From Micavibrio aeruginosavorus EPB (GTDB taxonomy: Bacteria > Pseudomonadota > Alphaproteobacteria > Micavibrionales > Micavibrionaceae), in the NCBI RefSeq assembly GCF_000348745.1, contig NC_020812.1, forward strand, positions 2,179,444 to 2,243,443: a stretch of DNA of 64,000 nt. The letters are read 5' to 3'. The notes below the pieces were generated by a model, which had not been told where the DNA came from, did no database searches, and saw only the letters and a program-made list of their open reading frames with translations. A program made the position numbers and the translations under genes. This document shows positions 550 to 3,821 of this stretch, one piece after another (position 1 is the stretch's first letter; each line of letters begins with the position of its first letter).

Positions 550-1716
550 TTAATCCTGCTTCTTGTTAAGGGTGGCTGTAGATTGCTCTACCGCTTTCAC
601 GGCGGTGTCGGGCTTGAGTTTTTGCCCACCCTCAACGACCACGCGATCTCCAGCGCTCAGGCCTTCCGCAACTAGCCAGCGATCCCCGACCACCCGCGAC
701 ACAGTAATGGGACGGATTTGTGCCTTATCGTCCTCGCCAATGCGCCAGACAGTCGTGGAGCCATCGGCATTGCGGGTTACGGCCTGCTGCGATACCAGAA
801 TGGCATCAGCCTTTTGAGCCTGCGTCACACGCGCTTTCACAAACAAGCCCGGCAACAGATCGATTTTCGGATTCTCAAACAGGATGCGCAGTTGCACCGT
901 CCCCGTTCCCTGATCGACGGTCACATCGGCAAATTGCAGAAGACCTTGTTCGCTGTAGGGTTCGCTTTCCCCCTCAATGGTCAGTGTGGCGGAGGCCTGC
1001 GCTGATGCCGAACCGCCATTTTCAAGAAAACGCTGCATCCGGCGCAGATCTGCGACCGATTGAGTAACGTCTACGTAAATTTTGTCCAGTTGCTGCACAA
1101 CAGCCAGCGGCGCGGCCTGTTCTGCCGTAACCAGCGCACCTTCTGTCACTGAGGATTTACCAATGCGGCCAGAGATGGGAGAAAACACTTTTGTGTAATC
1201 CAGATTGATCTTGGCCCTTGCAACGGCGGCTTTGGCAATCGCTACATCGGCCTTGCTCTGCTGCAGGGTGGCAACGATATCGTCGTATTCCTGCTTACTC
1301 ACACCGCCAATCTTTACCAGCTCGGCGTAACGCGCGGTCTTGGCCTCTGTGGATTTGATATTGGCCTCGGCCTTCTCCAAGTCAGCCATCGCGCTATCAT
1401 AGGTCGCCTTATAGGGAGCCGGGTCAATCTGGTAAAGCTGCTGGCCTTCCTTAACGTCACTGCCTTCCTCAAATAGGCGCTTGGTCACGATGCCGCTGAC
1501 CTGTGGGCGAATTTCCGCAATCTTGAACGCCTGCGTCCGGCCCGGCAGCTCCTGATACAGATCAATGTTTTCTGGCTTAAGTGTCACGACAGCAACGTCA
1601 ACGACCCGCGCCGCCGATTGCTGCGCTGTTTTCTGGCCTTTGTCATCTGAGGGCCACCAGATATAAGCCCCAACGCCCACCAGCAGCATCATGGCTACGA
1701 TTGCCAGTTTCTTCAT
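550..1716 (-). CDS. RND efflux periplasmic adaptor (MFP/HlyD family)
   Basis: This 388-residue membrane fusion protein bridges an RND permease and an outer-membrane channel. The N-terminus has a short hydrophobic signal or anchor (about residues 4-22). A beta-barrel/lipoyl half (PQVSGIVTKRLFEEGSDVKEG), a coiled-coil hairpin around 100-165, and the second lipoyl half (VFSPISGRIGKSSVTEGALV) follow, then the C-terminal barrel. Length and order are normal for AcrA/MexA-like proteins. It is followed 6 nt later by the permease gene. Its upstream region holds an ATTATTTCATG half-palindrome also present, in fuller form, upstream of the mipA-like gene at 35.4-36.2 kb, so the two may share a regulator. 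Confidence 0.95.
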   Translation of the reverse strand: MKKLAIVAMMLLVGVGAYIWWPSDDKGQKTAQQSAARVVDVAVVTLKPENIDLYQELPGRTQAFKIAEIRPQVSGIVTKRLFEEGSDVKEGQQLYQIDPAPYKATYDSAMADLEKAEANIKSTEAKTARYAELVKIGGVSKQEYDDIVATLQQSKADVAIAKAAVARAKINLDYTKVFSPISGRIGKSSVTEGALVTAEQAAPLAVVQQLDKIYVDVTQSVADLRRMQRFLENGGSASAQASATLTIEGESEPYSEQGLLQFADVTVDQGTGTVQLRILFENPKIDLLPGLFVKARVTQAQKADAILVSQQAVTRNADGSTTVWRIGEDDKAQIRPITVSRVVGDRWLVAEGLSAGDRVVVEGGQKLKPDTAVKAVEQSTATLNKKQD

Positions 1717-1784
1717 CGGGGACGCACTCCTCGTTAAGTGATTGAAATGCCAAAAATAGCGACATTATTTAATGTTGTAAATGT

Positions 1785-1811
1785 ATTATTTCATGTTTAT
1801 CATTAAAAAAC
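1785..1811. promoter_or_regulatory. Putative operator upstream of the efflux adaptor gene
   Basis: ATTATTTCATG, spacer TTTAT, then CATTAAAAAAC. The left arm and spacer are identical to a perfect 11-bp inverted repeat at 36277-36303; the right arm here matches 8 of 11 positions. It lies in AT-rich DNA about 70-95 nt upstream of the adaptor start. Reading it as a regulator binding site is inference. Confidence 0.45.
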
Positions 1812-1816
1812 ACATA

Positions 1817-1845
1817 AAAAAAGACCCCGCGTTGGTGGGGTCTCA
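1817..1845 (-). terminator. Rho-independent terminator at the left end of the phage transcript
   Basis: On the minus strand GAGACCCC, a short loop and GGGGTCTC-type pairing (AGACCCC/GGGGTCT) are followed by seven T. It sits just after the PAS-like small gene and would stop the leftward phage transcript before the efflux operon promoter. Confidence 0.8.
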
Positions 1846-1861
1846 ATTTACTGCGTTAAGC

Positions 1862-2080
1862 CTATTCCCTGCCAAATAACTCTGATGTGTTAATGGTTCT
1901 CGACAAACATCTGTGGTTTTTGTCTTTTATCTCATCCAGCGCGTAGCCCAGCGCAGTTAAAAAATTGTCATTTGCCCAGAGGATTTTGCCGTCCCTATCA
2001 AAATGAATCACGGCTCTTGAACGATTGAGAGCTGCAGCAAGCGCTTCATCATCGCTTTTTCTTGTTATATCGAGCATCAT
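1862..2080 (-). pseudogene. Truncated PAS-domain protein (chemoreceptor-like fragment)
   Basis: A 72-residue reading frame with a good ribosome binding site (AAGGAAG) and start. Residues about 17-55 (RAVIHFDRDGKILWANDNFL and ALGYALDEIKDKNH) match the PAS domain of Aer-like and methyl-accepting proteins, which bind a cofactor or ligand and signal. Only the first half of a PAS domain is present. The family normally continues HxMFV after the KNH; here the frame reads HRCLSR. Moving one frame after CACAG gives QMFVENH and then a stop, as expected from loss of one base. It is best read as a decayed fragment or a phage-carried remnant. A functional mini-protein cannot be excluded because the start signals are intact. 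Confidence 0.5.
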
Positions 2081-2179
2081 AAGACTTCCTTCTATTTAAT
2101 TCAGAGGCAGCCATCTGCTTATGAAGACGGATACCAAATTGGTATTATCCTGAAATATTTTTTGGAACAATCCTATAGA

Positions 2180-2389
2180 TCAGTGAAGTTTGCTTTTATA
2201 TGAGTCTTCAATAATATCCGCTGCAGCATTCCAGATATTTTTGATCCAAGGCGACATATAGGTGAAGCGTTGGTATCTATCATCACCTGCAGCCATAAGC
2301 CTTAATTCGGCAGCAATGATTGCGGGGCCATCTGCAACACTATCTAGGCCTGCTTGTAAGGGGGTTCTTTTATCGTCATCATCGGTCAT
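2180..2389 (-). CDS. Small hypothetical protein (69 aa)
   Basis: I do not recognise the family. The start is supported by TTAGGAG 6 nt before the ATG. The product is soluble, acidic at the N-terminus (MTDDDDKR) and has no membrane segment; Trp and aromatic residues cluster at 45-55. It is the first gene after the structured-RNA-like region and the last intact gene of the leftward phage transcript. It could be a late accessory gene. Function unknown. Confidence 0.55.
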   Translation of the reverse strand: MTDDDDKRTPLQAGLDSVADGPAIIAAELRLMAAGDDRYQRFTYMSPWIKNIWNAAADIIEDSYKSKLH

Positions 2390-2410
2390 TACGGTCTCCT
2401 AAAACTAAAC

Positions 2411-2437
2411 GATCACCAGAGACAATCTCTGGTGATC
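2411..2437 (-). terminator. Strong hairpin, terminator-like on the minus strand
   Basis: GATCACCAGAGA, a 3-nt loop, TCTCTGGTGATC: a perfect 12-bp stem. On the minus strand it is followed by GTTTAGTTTT, so it could stop transcripts arriving from the lysis genes. On the plus strand no T-run follows. It directly abuts the large folded element at 2438-2577 and the binding site of the 69-aa gene. Confidence 0.6.
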
Positions 2438-2600
2438 GGGGAGTAGTTACCGTCCGAGAACGGCCAGCGTATTTACGCTAGGCGCTATTGTATTCCGCTG
2501 CTCCCCGACCGTAGTCGAGAGGCAGCATCTGGGTGACGGCTGATGCCATTGCCGTCTCGGAAGGGGTAACTAGCCCCGGATCAGCCTTTTTCGCTGATCC
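2438..2600. ncRNA. Candidate structured RNA element between lysis genes and the phage end
   Basis: This stretch has no plausible coding frame but strong folding potential. GGGG (2438-2441) pairs with CCCC (2574-2577); TAGTTACC (2444-2451) with GGTAACTA (2565-2572); and CCGAGA-A-CGGC (2454-2464) with GCCGTCTCGG (2551-2560, one bulged base). Together they make an interrupted stem of about 22 bp closing an 86-nt interior. Inside are AGCGTA/TACGCT (2466-2479), CGAC/GTCG near 2506-2517 and a GGCA...TGCC hairpin at 2521-2546. A separate hairpin GGATCAGC/GCTGATCC follows at 2578-2600. I cannot assign it to a known RNA family, and the transcribed strand is not clear. Confidence 0.45.
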
Positions 2601-2693
2601 GCATGCATGTTAGCCAATCCAAATAAGTTTAGCAATTAACGAAACGCTGATTATGGCGAATCTCTCACCGATGGGTCGCCCAAGTATACATGC

Positions 2694-2930
2694 TTAAGGG
2701 CAGCTTTCACGGATTTGCGCCCGTAGCACGCCGTAGTCTTGAACAGCCACCGGGAATGCCGCATTGCCTGATGCAGCTTCAATTTCATCCGCTAACTTGT
2801 TTTGAAATTTGCGATCATATTCCTTGATCGGCGGACAGGTGGTTGCCGGGTTAGAATTTGCCCCGGCGCAAGCGGTCAACAAGCTCACTGCGAGTACGGG
2901 GAGCATCCAGCGTTGCACGAAGTTGCGCAT
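2694..2930 (-). CDS. Rz1-like outer-membrane spanin lipoprotein
   Basis: A 78-residue lipoprotein: a signal peptide (about residues 1-20) ends in the lipobox LTAC with the lipidated Cys at 21, followed by a short periplasmic part. It starts inside the preceding Rz-like gene in another frame (80-nt overlap), the nested arrangement typical of Rz/Rz1 pairs. With its partner it spans the periplasm and fuses the inner and outer membranes at the last step of lysis. The binding site GAGG precedes the ATG. The mature part is less proline-rich than lambda Rz1, so the call rests on the lipobox and gene overlap. Confidence 0.75.
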   Translation of the reverse strand: MRNFVQRWMLPVLAVSLLTACAGANSNPATTCPPIKEYDRKFQNKLADEIEAASGNAAFPVAVQDYGVLRAQIRESCP

Positions 2931-3090
2931 TTTTTACCTCGATGATTTTTTTGAGTTGGTCGTTACGTTCAGCACTCCGGCCTGCCTGACGTGCGCCAAG
3001 CAAGACAACCAGAACCGAAAGGCCAGCTGCGCCCCATCCAAGGAGGCGCAGCATATGACCCGACAGCCAATTTTTAAGAATGCTCCCCAT
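2851..3090 (-). CDS. Rz-like inner-membrane spanin
   Basis: A 79-residue protein with an N-terminal transmembrane segment (about residues 14-35, MLRLLGWGAAGLSVLVVLLG) and a charged, helical periplasmic part (ERNDQLKKIIEVKNAQ) expected to form a coiled coil. The ATG at 3088-3090 overlaps the endolysin stop codon as TGATG, so translation is coupled. The overlapping lipoprotein gene (2694-2930) is its partner. The family joins inner and outer membranes during phage lysis. It is shorter than lambda Rz. Confidence 0.75.
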   Translation of the reverse strand: MGSILKNWLSGHMLRLLGWGAAGLSVLVVLLGARQAGRSAERNDQLKKIIEVKNAQLRATLDAPRTRSELVDRLRRGKF

Positions 3091-3749
3091 CAACGAAGCC
3101 CTTTCCGGCGGTCATCGATCCGCGCCCACAGCATGACGCCAATACCAATCAACGTAACCACTAGCAGCAGCCATTTCGCCGCCTCCAAATAGGGAGCAAT
3201 AGCCATCAACGTGGTGGTGGCTGGCTCCAAGGAATCCTGAATGGCTTCGATTCCTCCAGCGCCCAGCGTGCCTGCCGTGGCAACTTGGCCGCCTTTGACC
3301 GTGCGCGAAGTCTGCAGGCTTTTTTGACCCGGCTCCACCCCAGCCAGCACCAGCGCCTTGGTAATTTCAACATCACTGTACGGTTGCTGGCCGTTCTCAT
3401 GCTGGATGATGGCTTCCAGCACAGGCTTCAAATGTTCGAAGCGATGCATGTCCAGCGTTTGTAATGCGGCGAAGCCTGTATGGCGTGCAACCGACTGGAT
3501 ATAAGCCTTTGTATTGTTCTCCACGGCTGGTGCCCAACGCGTGATGATCATCTCAATGGTGCAAAGACCGTATTTATCCTGATAGGTGATGAGCAGTCGA
3601 GCCAAAGCACGGATGCCATAAACGGCGGATTTGAACATGAAAAATTCCCGGTCGTTCTGCTCCTTGGCAAGTCCCTGCCATGGGTCGTTTGAACGGCGGA
3701 TGTTGCCGGGGTTGTTGTTACGGATGCCGCGCGGTTTTTGCGTCGTCAT
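3090..3749 (-). CDS. Phage endolysin, lysozyme-like, with C-terminal membrane anchor
   Basis: A 219-residue protein. The start RGIRNNNPGNIRRSNDPWQG is the signature of a phage/virion lysozyme-like family (related to PRD1 P5-type annotations) that cuts peptidoglycan. The catalytic-type domain covers about 1-125. A linker follows, then one transmembrane segment near 187-207 (AKWLLLVVTLIGIGVMLW) with a basic tail. A C-terminal anchor is unusual for a soluble endolysin and suggests the enzyme is held at the inner membrane until release. A binding site AGGAG precedes the start. It leads the lysis block, with Rz/Rz1 directly after. No separate holin was recognised; the small membrane protein at 3822-4112 is a candidate. 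Confidence 0.8.
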   Translation of the reverse strand: MTTQKPRGIRNNNPGNIRRSNDPWQGLAKEQNDREFFMFKSAVYGIRALARLLITYQDKYGLCTIEMIITRWAPAVENNTKAYIQSVARHTGFAALQTLDMHRFEHLKPVLEAIIQHENGQQPYSDVEITKALVLAGVEPGQKSLQTSRTVKGGQVATAGTLGAGGIEAIQDSLEPATTTLMAIAPYLEAAKWLLLVVTLIGIGVMLWARIDDRRKGLR

Positions 3750-3769: not shown

Positions 3770-3798
3770 AATGAAAAAGCCGCCTTGAACGGGCGGCT
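3770..3798 (-). terminator. Terminator between the tail tip and lysis genes
   Basis: On the minus strand AGCCGCC, a 7-nt loop and GGCGGCT are followed by TTTTTCATTTT. It lies between the DUF6127 gene and the endolysin, so lysis genes need either readthrough or their own promoter. Confidence 0.75.
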
Positions 3799-3821
3799 CG
3801 GAAAGCTCGTGTGTGTGATTT

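What the first reader, a model, noticed from the sequence alone, without database searches (positions are those of the whole stretch)
2411..2600. Large foldable element between the lysis genes and the phage end
The 2438-2577 block has an interrupted stem of about 22 bp closing an 86-nt interior, plus flanking hairpins at 2411-2437 and 2578-2600. It has no credible reading frame. Stems at both strands fit, so direction is open. It lies where late transcripts end, a place where phages put processing or antitermination RNAs. I cannot match it to a known RNA family.
Basis: partly seen in the sequence, partly recalled or inferred. Interest (0 to 1): 0.6.

Follow-up and report, generated by a model that had tools for sequence, protein, structure and literature searches.

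The report
Mobile antisense-type leader RNA
A real, strongly folded RNA of about 190 letters sits at the end of a prophage and belongs to a family of mobile regulatory RNAs placed just in front of small accessory genes; relatives of it carry a complement to the start site of the next gene, so such RNAs probably act as private on/off controls.

Summary
The fold is real (z -8.5 and -9.7). It is an RNA gene on the minus strand (5' 2600 to 3' 2411): promoter-like sequence, 5' hairpin, core with two pseudoknots, intrinsic terminator, then Shine-Dalgarno and ATG of a 69-aa gene (2389-2180). Copies occur in 86 of 142 genomes of the order. A gene start follows the core in 57 of 61 copies examined, against 4-13 of 57-60 at control places. 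Covariation is overwhelming, pseudoknots included (36 of 47 pairs changed on both sides). The 3' half matches Rfam sRNA-Xcc1 below its cut-off (44.7 of 53 bits, E 4.8e-7): a long, divergent branch of that family. In sRNA-Xcc1 loci the RNA's 3' part is complementary both to its own 5' extension and to the ribosome-binding site of the next gene (two blocks of 6 nt or more in 23 of 54, 0.25 expected). Up to 14 of 54 of those genes have antirepressor-type domains. That is the layout of P4 CI and P1 C4 antisense RNAs. The window branch keeps the self-complementary guide but shows no such match at the next gene's start. So its exact mode is inferred, and formal Rfam membership is not met.

The parts
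2607..2635 (-). promoter-like sequence: TTGCTA (2630-2635), 17 nt, TAACAT (2607-2612)
   Evidence: 8 of 12 consensus bases; in 60 copies the best upstream match is >=9 of 12 in 19, against 2 of 60 in a control stretch
2578..2600 (-). 5' hairpin of the RNA (sequence varies between copies)
2438..2577 (-). RNA core: P1 (2566-2571 with 2445-2450; 2574-2577 with 2438-2441), pseudoknot helices S1 (2551-2554 with 2537-2540) and S2 (2542-2546 with 2525-2529), hairpin P4 (2514-2519 with 2504-2509), P5 (2496-2500 with 2465-2469) enclosing the conserved AATACAATA (2486-2494), P6 (2460-2462 with 2451-2453)
   Evidence: covariation on 63 distinct copies: 92.2% of cells paired, 338 double-sided cells, covariation 0.374 against 0.169 shuffled and at most 0.096 slid
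2555..2560 (-). 5' strand of the second pseudoknot (PK2), variable guide block; partner 2454-2459 in the P6 loop
   Evidence: PK2 90.4% of cells paired, all six pairs change on both sides
2426..2510 (-). match to Rfam RF02221 sRNA-Xcc1, full length of the model
   Evidence: 44.7 bits, cut-off 53, E 4.8e-7
2430..2510 (-). alternative helix H, 2501-2510 with 2434-2443, followed by ACCA (2430-2433); excludes the lower part of P1
   Evidence: best helix >=9 bp in 58 of 61 copies against 5% of shuffled cores; NCCA after H in 48 of 61 against 6% in shuffled tails; five of seven pairs change on both sides
2401..2437 (-). intrinsic-terminator-like hairpin (2411-2437) and T-rich tail
2396..2399 (-). 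Shine-Dalgarno GGAG of the downstream gene
   Evidence: sequence; in the copies' genes GGGAG occurs in 40% of 57 against 3.5% of 144 other genes of the same loci
2180..2389 (-). 69-aa gene led by the RNA; no Pfam, PHROGs or PADLOC match
   Evidence: homologues behind the same RNA in L022 and in viral contig L207

Best explanation
The element is a non-coding RNA gene of about 190 nt on the minus strand that forms a movable two-part module with the accessory gene behind it (here a 69-aa protein of unknown function). It is a long, double-pseudoknotted branch of the sRNA-Xcc1 superfamily and most likely works like the P4 CI / P1 C4 antisense RNAs. The 3' strand carries a variable two-block guide (P6 loop plus the strand after it), which is paired with, and so matched to, a 5' strand of the same transcript. 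An alternative tRNA-acceptor-like helix (H plus NCCA) would form in the 3' half, probably after removal of the 5' half by an RNase P-type cut, and free the guide. The freed RNA would then recognise only leaders of its own specificity and keep the downstream gene off, by termination at the built-in terminator and/or by covering the start site. Shown by comparison: RNA identity, strand, fold, guide pairing within the RNA, coupling to a downstream gene, and guide-to-RBS matching in the RF02221 branch. Inferred: processing, action in trans, the direction of the effect, and the mode in the window branch.
For: Fold far beyond chance. Covariation including both pseudoknots. 86 of 142 genomes of the order. 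Start codon with SD 38-66 nt after the core in 57 of 61 copies (57 of 60 with enough sequence, against 4-13 of 57-60 at five same-strand offsets and 7 of 60 on the other strand; strict ATG and SD 51 of 60 against 1-2). Significant RF02221 match. RF02221 hits in 58 of 398 genomes of the phylum, 39 over the cut-off, with a complementary 5' extension. On 74 such loci the guide fits its own 5' extension (13.51 versus 7.53 for others) and its own downstream leader (8.04 versus 6.26), 0 of 20000 permutations each; controls 150 nt further on (4062 of 20000) and same-sense (18215 of 20000) are flat. Both blocks >=6 nt in 23 of 54, 0.25 expected. Antirepressor-type domains (Rha 5, Bro-N 5, P22_AR_N, AntA, KilA-N and ORF6N 1 each; at most 14 proteins) and SymE 6 among 54 downstream proteins. 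An Escherichia phage has two RNA copies in tandem (L190); this region aligns over its whole length, 91.2% identical, to phage PhiR5_2, where two genes annotated as antirepressors lie. 57 distinct guides among 61 copies. A diverged second copy in the same genome keeps P1, PK2, H+ACCA, terminator and a lipoprotein-like gene. The same RNA plus a homologue of the 69-aa protein lies in another viral contig.
Against: In the window branch the two-block guide-to-RBS test is flat (7.40 versus 7.40, 10080 of 20000), an SD-anchored test is not significant, and only a looser alignment test is weakly positive (47 of 20000). None of 55 downstream proteins of this branch has an antirepressor family in Pfam at E 0.001. 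In the window RNA, forcing H costs 16.6 kcal/mol, and the 3' strand pairs to the 5' strand in 60 of 61 predicted folds, H in 0; in RF02221 loci H wins in 11 of 74. NCCA overlaps the terminator stem, so its conservation may have another cause; N-CC follows in only 27 of 75 RF02221 loci. The RF02221 score is under the curated cut-off. The C4 model does not match. No expression data.
Confidence: 0.55

Rival explanations
1. Cis-acting attenuator or riboswitch-like leader: two exclusive folds (P1+PK2 against H) decide whether the terminator at 2411-2437 stops transcription before the 69-aa gene, in response to a ligand or protein, with no antisense step.
For: P1-lower and H compete for the same 3' strand and both covary; H takes four bases of the terminator stem (2434-2437); fixed spacing to the gene start in 57 of 61 copies; no cis RBS match in this branch.
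Against: Downstream genes with a Pfam family are of different kinds (DUF2846, Sel1, HTH, hexapeptide transferase and others), unlike a ligand regulon; much of the variation lies in the base-paired guide blocks (P1, PK2); the sister branch has antisense matching to the RBS.
Confidence: 0.3
2. Autonomous trans-acting sRNA with distant chromosomal targets, merely carried next to an accessory gene.
For: sRNA-Xcc1 was detected as a discrete RNA of about 100 nt with mapped ends (PMC2996969, passages) and is called trans-acting in the title of a paper seen only as a reference.
Against: 57 distinct guides among 61 copies do not fit a shared chromosomal target; a gene follows at fixed distance in 57 of 61 copies; in the sister branch the target is the adjacent gene. 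I did not search for distant targets.
Confidence: 0.1
3. Plain strong terminator region closing the phage late operon.
For: Terminator-like hairpin at 2411-2437 behind an endolysin-like gene and small genes.
Against: Does not explain 140 nt of covarying pseudoknotted core, the promoter-like sequence, the following gene, or copies in other contexts.
Confidence: 0.03
4. DNA-level mobile palindrome (MITE-like, REP-like or integron attC).
For: Dispersed, multi-copy in some genomes; sRNA-Xcc1 occurs in integron cassettes (PMC12444791, passages).
Against: Strand bias of wobble pairs (238 G-U against 51 A-C), pseudoknots, promoter-like sequence and terminator all point to RNA; the own genome has one strong and one diverged copy.
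Confidence: 0.02

Closest known systems
sRNA-Xcc1 (Rfam RF02221)
   Same: 3' half has the same order of helices (H, P5, P6), the AATACAA motif and the 3' complement; a gene follows in most loci examined (64 of 75)
   Different: score under the cut-off (44.7 of 53); the window RNA carries a 5' half with an H-type pseudoknot and a separate terminator; the Rfam model covers 87 positions; downstream genes of this branch match no antirepressor or SymE family
P4 CI RNA (seqA - CI - seqC)
   Same: antisense segment with a complementary upstream copy on the same transcript; termination before the genes (P4 as described in PMC4825925, passages)
   Different: no seqC match found in the window branch; kinship not shown
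C4 antisense RNA of P1/P7 (Rfam RF01695)
   Same: leader RNA complementary around the ribosome-binding site of the next gene, often an antirepressor (met in the RF02221 branch); processing at a GG start is described for C4-like RNAs (PMC5320573, passages)
   Different: RF01695 is not among the matches up to E 10 in window 1700-3200 nor up to E 0.5 in 16 loci
IsrK of Gifsy-1 (Rfam RF01394)
   Same: terminated sRNA whose read-through transcript carries an antirepressor gene and whose short form acts on its own mRNA (PMC4825925, passages)
   Different: RF01394 not among the matches; IsrK activates, through an intermediate ORF

Membership tests
sRNA-Xcc1 (RF02221) | covariance model score at or above the gathering score (53 bits) | tested here: not met
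   44.7 bits, E 4.8e-7
sRNA-Xcc1 (RF02221) | full-length alignment with closing helix, P5 and P6 | tested here: met
   model 1-87 of 87 aligned; H, P5, P6 covary; an 81-nt 3' piece of the window RNA folds to H and P6 with a hairpin in place of P5
sRNA-Xcc1 (RF02221) | discrete RNA of about 88 nt | not testable with these tools
   known for Xanthomonas (passages); no expression data here
C4 antisense RNA (RF01695) | match to the Rfam model | tested here: not met
   no RF01695 among matches up to E 10 in 1700-3200
C4 antisense RNA (RF01695) | complementarity to the RBS of the adjacent gene | tested here: not met
   window branch 7.40 versus 7.40, weak signal only; met in the RF02221 branch
C4 antisense RNA (RF01695) | adjacent antirepressor gene | tested here: not met
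   69-aa gene has no Pfam or PHROGs match
P4 CI-type leader | antisense segment complementary to an upstream copy on the same transcript (seqA) | tested here: met
   13.31 versus 6.72, 0 of 20000, 53 loci; P1 and PK2 covariation
P4 CI-type leader | second complementary copy downstream (seqC) | tested here: not met
   weak signal only
P4 CI-type leader | processed 5' end | not testable with these tools
   only indirect: NCCA after H in 48 of 61
intrinsic terminator | G+C-rich hairpin followed by a T run | tested here: met
   minus 2438-2410 with TTTAGTTTTA; the scan finds 5 sites where shuffles give 3.2

The most novel reading that the evidence does not exclude
RNA-plus-gene cassettes form a general, mobile, guide-carrying control system across Pseudomonadota: each RNA holds a private two-block guide masked by its own 5' strand and freed by processing, so that prophages, integron cassettes and defence islands each silence or release their own cargo gene without cross-talk. 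Rfam's sRNA-Xcc1, studied as a virulence sRNA, would be the processed half of it, and the Micavibrio branch would be a version that acts on the nascent leader rather than on the start site.
Probability: 0.35. Interest if true: 0.8.

Novelty: new variant of a known kind. Interest (0 to 1): 0.62.

Why it matters
It offers a testable function for an RNA family that the papers seen here (passages only) treat as a regulator of virulence or a vesicle sRNA: the first thing to look at is the gene immediately downstream, often a phage antirepressor. If the window branch works likewise, a lineage that includes Micavibrio and its phages use dozens of mutually distinct RNA guides to control small accessory proteins. 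The self-masked guide would also be a natural riboregulator with many ready-made different versions.

Tried and rejected
A cis RBS target for the window branch was tested in four ways. One search gave 47 of 20000. The SD-anchored test (42 of 57 loci usable) was not significant. In one search the duplex energy was better than for unrelated genes (p 0.006), but not after matching for GGAG (p 0.32) nor against other copies (p 0.14). The two-block test was flat. I therefore do not claim it.

isrK or C4 Rfam models in the 5' extension: none up to E 0.5 in 16 loci. Anti-phage defence genes as cargo: 20 PADLOC models, each in 1 of 55 proteins, no pattern. Avoidance of equal guides among copies in one genome: 5.30 versus 5.70 differences of 12, one pair identical, no support. 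Whole-element blastn in phage records found nothing; plasmid hits covered at most 21% of the query at E 0.9. IS110 bridge RNA, TnpB guide RNA and type III toxin-antitoxin RNA were considered and dropped on architecture; no dedicated test was made, and one search shows only 25 of 83 neighbour families. Controls for the gene start, helix H and NCCA were run late and held; shuffled cores reach a helix of 7 bp in a third of cases, so I use the 9 bp count.

Rows dropped or not given: 10 of 64 RF02221 downstream ORFs left out as doubtful calls; 2 of 57 short ORFs left out; 22 of 109 neighbour proteins left out; only RF02221 genes starting within 60 nt were used (54 of 64); one of 75 RF02221 loci dropped for lack of downstream sequence. 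RF02221 loci used: 71 of the 103 places listed (best-scoring ones), plus 4 from named records. Micavibrio-branch regions: the 60 best-scoring places plus the window; that list was itself cut by the tool. In one search and 38 the tool used stricter filters, so the genome counts are lower bounds.

Full report
OBSERVATION. The region 2411-2600 folds far better than shuffled sequence on either strand (z -8.49 and -9.74, 0 of 200 shuffles). blastn finds no match in the phage records and only short matches at E 0.9 in the plasmid records. At gathering thresholds Rfam gives only a tRNA in the whole window, but a permissive search gives one clear match here, RF02221 sRNA-Xcc1, on the minus strand at 2510-2426, model 1-87 complete, 44.7 bits against a cut-off of 53, E 4.8e-7.

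A FAMILY OF RNA-PLUS-GENE MODULES. blastn with the element finds copies in 29 of 95 genomes of the relatives search. A covariance model of the core (R1) finds matches in 86 of 142 genomes of the order, several per genome in some, but in only 6 of 398 genomes spread over the phylum, the own genome included. Of 8 named hits of an exact core pattern, two are Micavibrio sp. assemblies. The window genome (one contig of 2,458,610 bases) is probably Micavibrio aeruginosavorus; that name is recalled, not returned by a tool. Sixty-one copies (the 60 best-scoring places and the window) were examined in detail. In 57 of 61 a start codon (ATG or GTG) with a Shine-Dalgarno-like sequence and at least 30 codons follows 38-66 nt after the core, in a search of 36-100 nt. 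The same search finds 4-13 of 57-60 at five other same-strand offsets and 7 of 60 on the opposite strand; with ATG and a stricter SD it is 51 of 60 against 1-2. Upstream, promoter-like pairs of hexamers are enriched (19 of 60 copies with at least 9 of 12 matches, against 2 of 60 control stretches). The gene upstream of the module lies on the same strand in 31 of 56 cases, so the module is not tied to a host operon. Among 87 of the 109 neighbouring proteins the commonest Pfam family is phage integrase (6); reverse transcriptases (2), a transposase, methyltransferases and HamA also occur (lists cut at 25 families): mobile and defence-rich surroundings.

STRUCTURE. An alignment of 64 copies (63 distinct) supports a nine-helix structure with two pseudoknots. 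92.2% of cells pair, 36 of 47 pairs show changes on both sides, and the covariation score is 0.374 against 0.169 in shuffles and at most 0.096 when the partners are slid. The alignment was fitted to a model holding P1, P4, P5, P6 and part of S2; S1 and PK2 were not in that model and still reach 98.7% and 90.4%. P4 is the weakest helix (77.5%). An alternative helix H, which equals the closing helix of the Rfam model, also covaries, although it shares its 3' strand with P1. The best helix at that place is at least 7 bp in 61 of 61 copies and at least 9 bp in 58 of 61, against 5% of shuffled cores. It is followed by NCCA in 48 of 61, against 6% in shuffled tails; this is reminiscent of a tRNA acceptor end, but the copies are related and the bases also serve the terminator stem. 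In the window RNA the P1 fold is favoured by 16.6 kcal/mol over H, while an 81-nt 3' piece folds with H closed. Wobble counts (238 G-U, 51 A-C) agree with the minus strand being the RNA.

WHAT THE SISTER BRANCH SHOWS. RF02221 itself matches 58 of 398 genomes of the phylum (39 over the cut-off) and none of 14 control genomes. Reading upstream of 30 of these hits shows, in many, a 5' extension with strands complementary to the 3' part of the RNA, and reading downstream shows the same two segments again around the Shine-Dalgarno sequence of the next gene. On 74 loci the complementarity of the RNA's 3' part is specific to its own 5' extension (13.51 against 7.53) and to its own downstream leader (8.04 against 6.26), 0 of 20000 permutations each, while a control region 150 nt further (4062 of 20000) and a same-sense control (18215 of 20000) show nothing. 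It is not universal: the own leader ranks first in 13 of 74 and in the top three in 21. In a dedicated test 23 of 54 loci have both blocks of 6 nt or more, with 0.25 expected from mismatched pairs. Of 54 downstream proteins given (of 64 called in 75 loci), 6 match SymE, 5 Rha, 5 Bro-N, and one each P22_AR_N, AntA, KilA-N and ORF6N. An Escherichia phage has two RNA copies in tandem (L190); that region aligns over its whole length, 91.2% identical, to phage PhiR5_2, where two genes annotated as antirepressors lie. DNA similar to the L190 region occurs in 579 of 5426 E. coli genomes, covering at least 80% of it in 63; part of these matches may rest on the antirepressor gene rather than the RNA. 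Vibrio phage VPBES carries an annotated sRNA-Xcc1 among tail genes with a small gene 30 nt behind it.

THE WINDOW BRANCH DIFFERS. The same two-block test is flat here (7.40 against 7.40, 10080 of 20000); an SD-anchored test is not significant; a looser alignment test is weak (47 of 20000). Its downstream genes are different: of 55 proteins, 3 match DUF2846, 2 Sel1, and single ones HTH and other families; most match none. What is kept is the pairing of the guide with the 5' strand of the same RNA (13.31 against 6.72, 0 of 20000), with 57 distinct guides in 61 copies. The downstream genes do have unusually strong GGGAG sites (40% of 57 against 3.5% of 144 other genes), complementary to the CUCCC of the RNA, but with a GGAG-matched control the pairing is not better.

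THE WINDOW LOCUS. The RNA follows an endolysin-like gene and two small genes of PHROGs families without known function, which overlap as spanin genes often do (recalled), and precedes a 69-aa gene without Pfam, PHROGs or PADLOC match. An IMG/VR viral contig piece (L023) is identical to window 2180-3520 and so includes the RNA and its gene. The same RNA with a homologue of the 69-aa protein occurs in genome locus L022 and in viral contig L207, in the latter between a repressor-like gene and a serine recombinase gene (these two names are my reading of the translations, not a family search). A second, diverged copy lies elsewhere in the same genome (31.6 bits); it keeps P1, the second pseudoknot, H with ACCA, the terminator and a lipoprotein-like gene starting 52 nt on (read by eye).

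MECHANISM. The layout upstream copy - antisense RNA - downstream copy is that of P4 CI RNA, described in the IsrK paper (PMC4825925, passages), and the RBS-blocking antirepressor control is that of C4 (PMC12197685, passages). C4-like RNAs with read coverage that begins at a GG start known as the RNase P site of C4 are described for Acinetobacter (PMC5320573, passages). I therefore read sRNA-Xcc1 as an analogue, perhaps a distant relative, of C4, although the C4 model itself does not match. For the window I infer the same self-recognition principle with action on its own leader. An attenuator without antisense action is the main rival.

LITERATURE. sRNA-Xcc1 was found by cloning in Xanthomonas with an 88-nt mapped length (PMC2996969, passages). 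A 2025 study notes that it lies upstream of symE in integron cassettes (PMC12444791, passages), and another lists seven copies in one Xylella genome (PMC12189769, passages). The 2011 functional paper is not held; I know only its title. Searches for sRNA-Xcc1 (18 papers listed, three of them looked into for function), for RF02221, and for it together with antirepressor or C4 terms showed me no paper that links it to antirepressors or to pairing with the next gene's start; that is a statement about these searches only, of which one search listed 20 of 418 papers.

Noticed in passing
L197 (own genome C1:897822-897964, minus strand): A diverged second copy of the RNA with perfect H helix plus ACCA, terminator and a 150-aa lipoprotein-like gene; found only at 31.6 bits, so weak hits may include real diverged copies.
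   Followed up: partly
window 1862-2080, minus strand: Short ORF of 72 aa that reads to me like the first part of a PAS domain, between the RNA's gene and efflux-type genes; no PHROGs match, Pfam not searched.
   Followed up: no
L190 2460-2549 and 2999-3084: Two tandem sRNA-Xcc1 copies in an Escherichia phage, the second directly before a gene that reads like AntA/AntB.
   Followed up: partly
window 1821-1844 and 3777-3799, minus strand: Two further terminator-like hairpins on either side of the small genes at the phage edge.
   Followed up: no
RF02221 loci, e.g. L116, L142, in the 110 nt before the core: The 5' extension of many RF02221 loci contains its own terminator-like hairpin with a T run, as if the upstream decoy were a separate short RNA (by eye).
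   Followed up: no
L115 379-742: A tmRNA gene lies about 760 bases from an sRNA-Xcc1 copy with a gene that reads like Bro-N; tmRNA genes are common integration sites (recalled).
   Followed up: no
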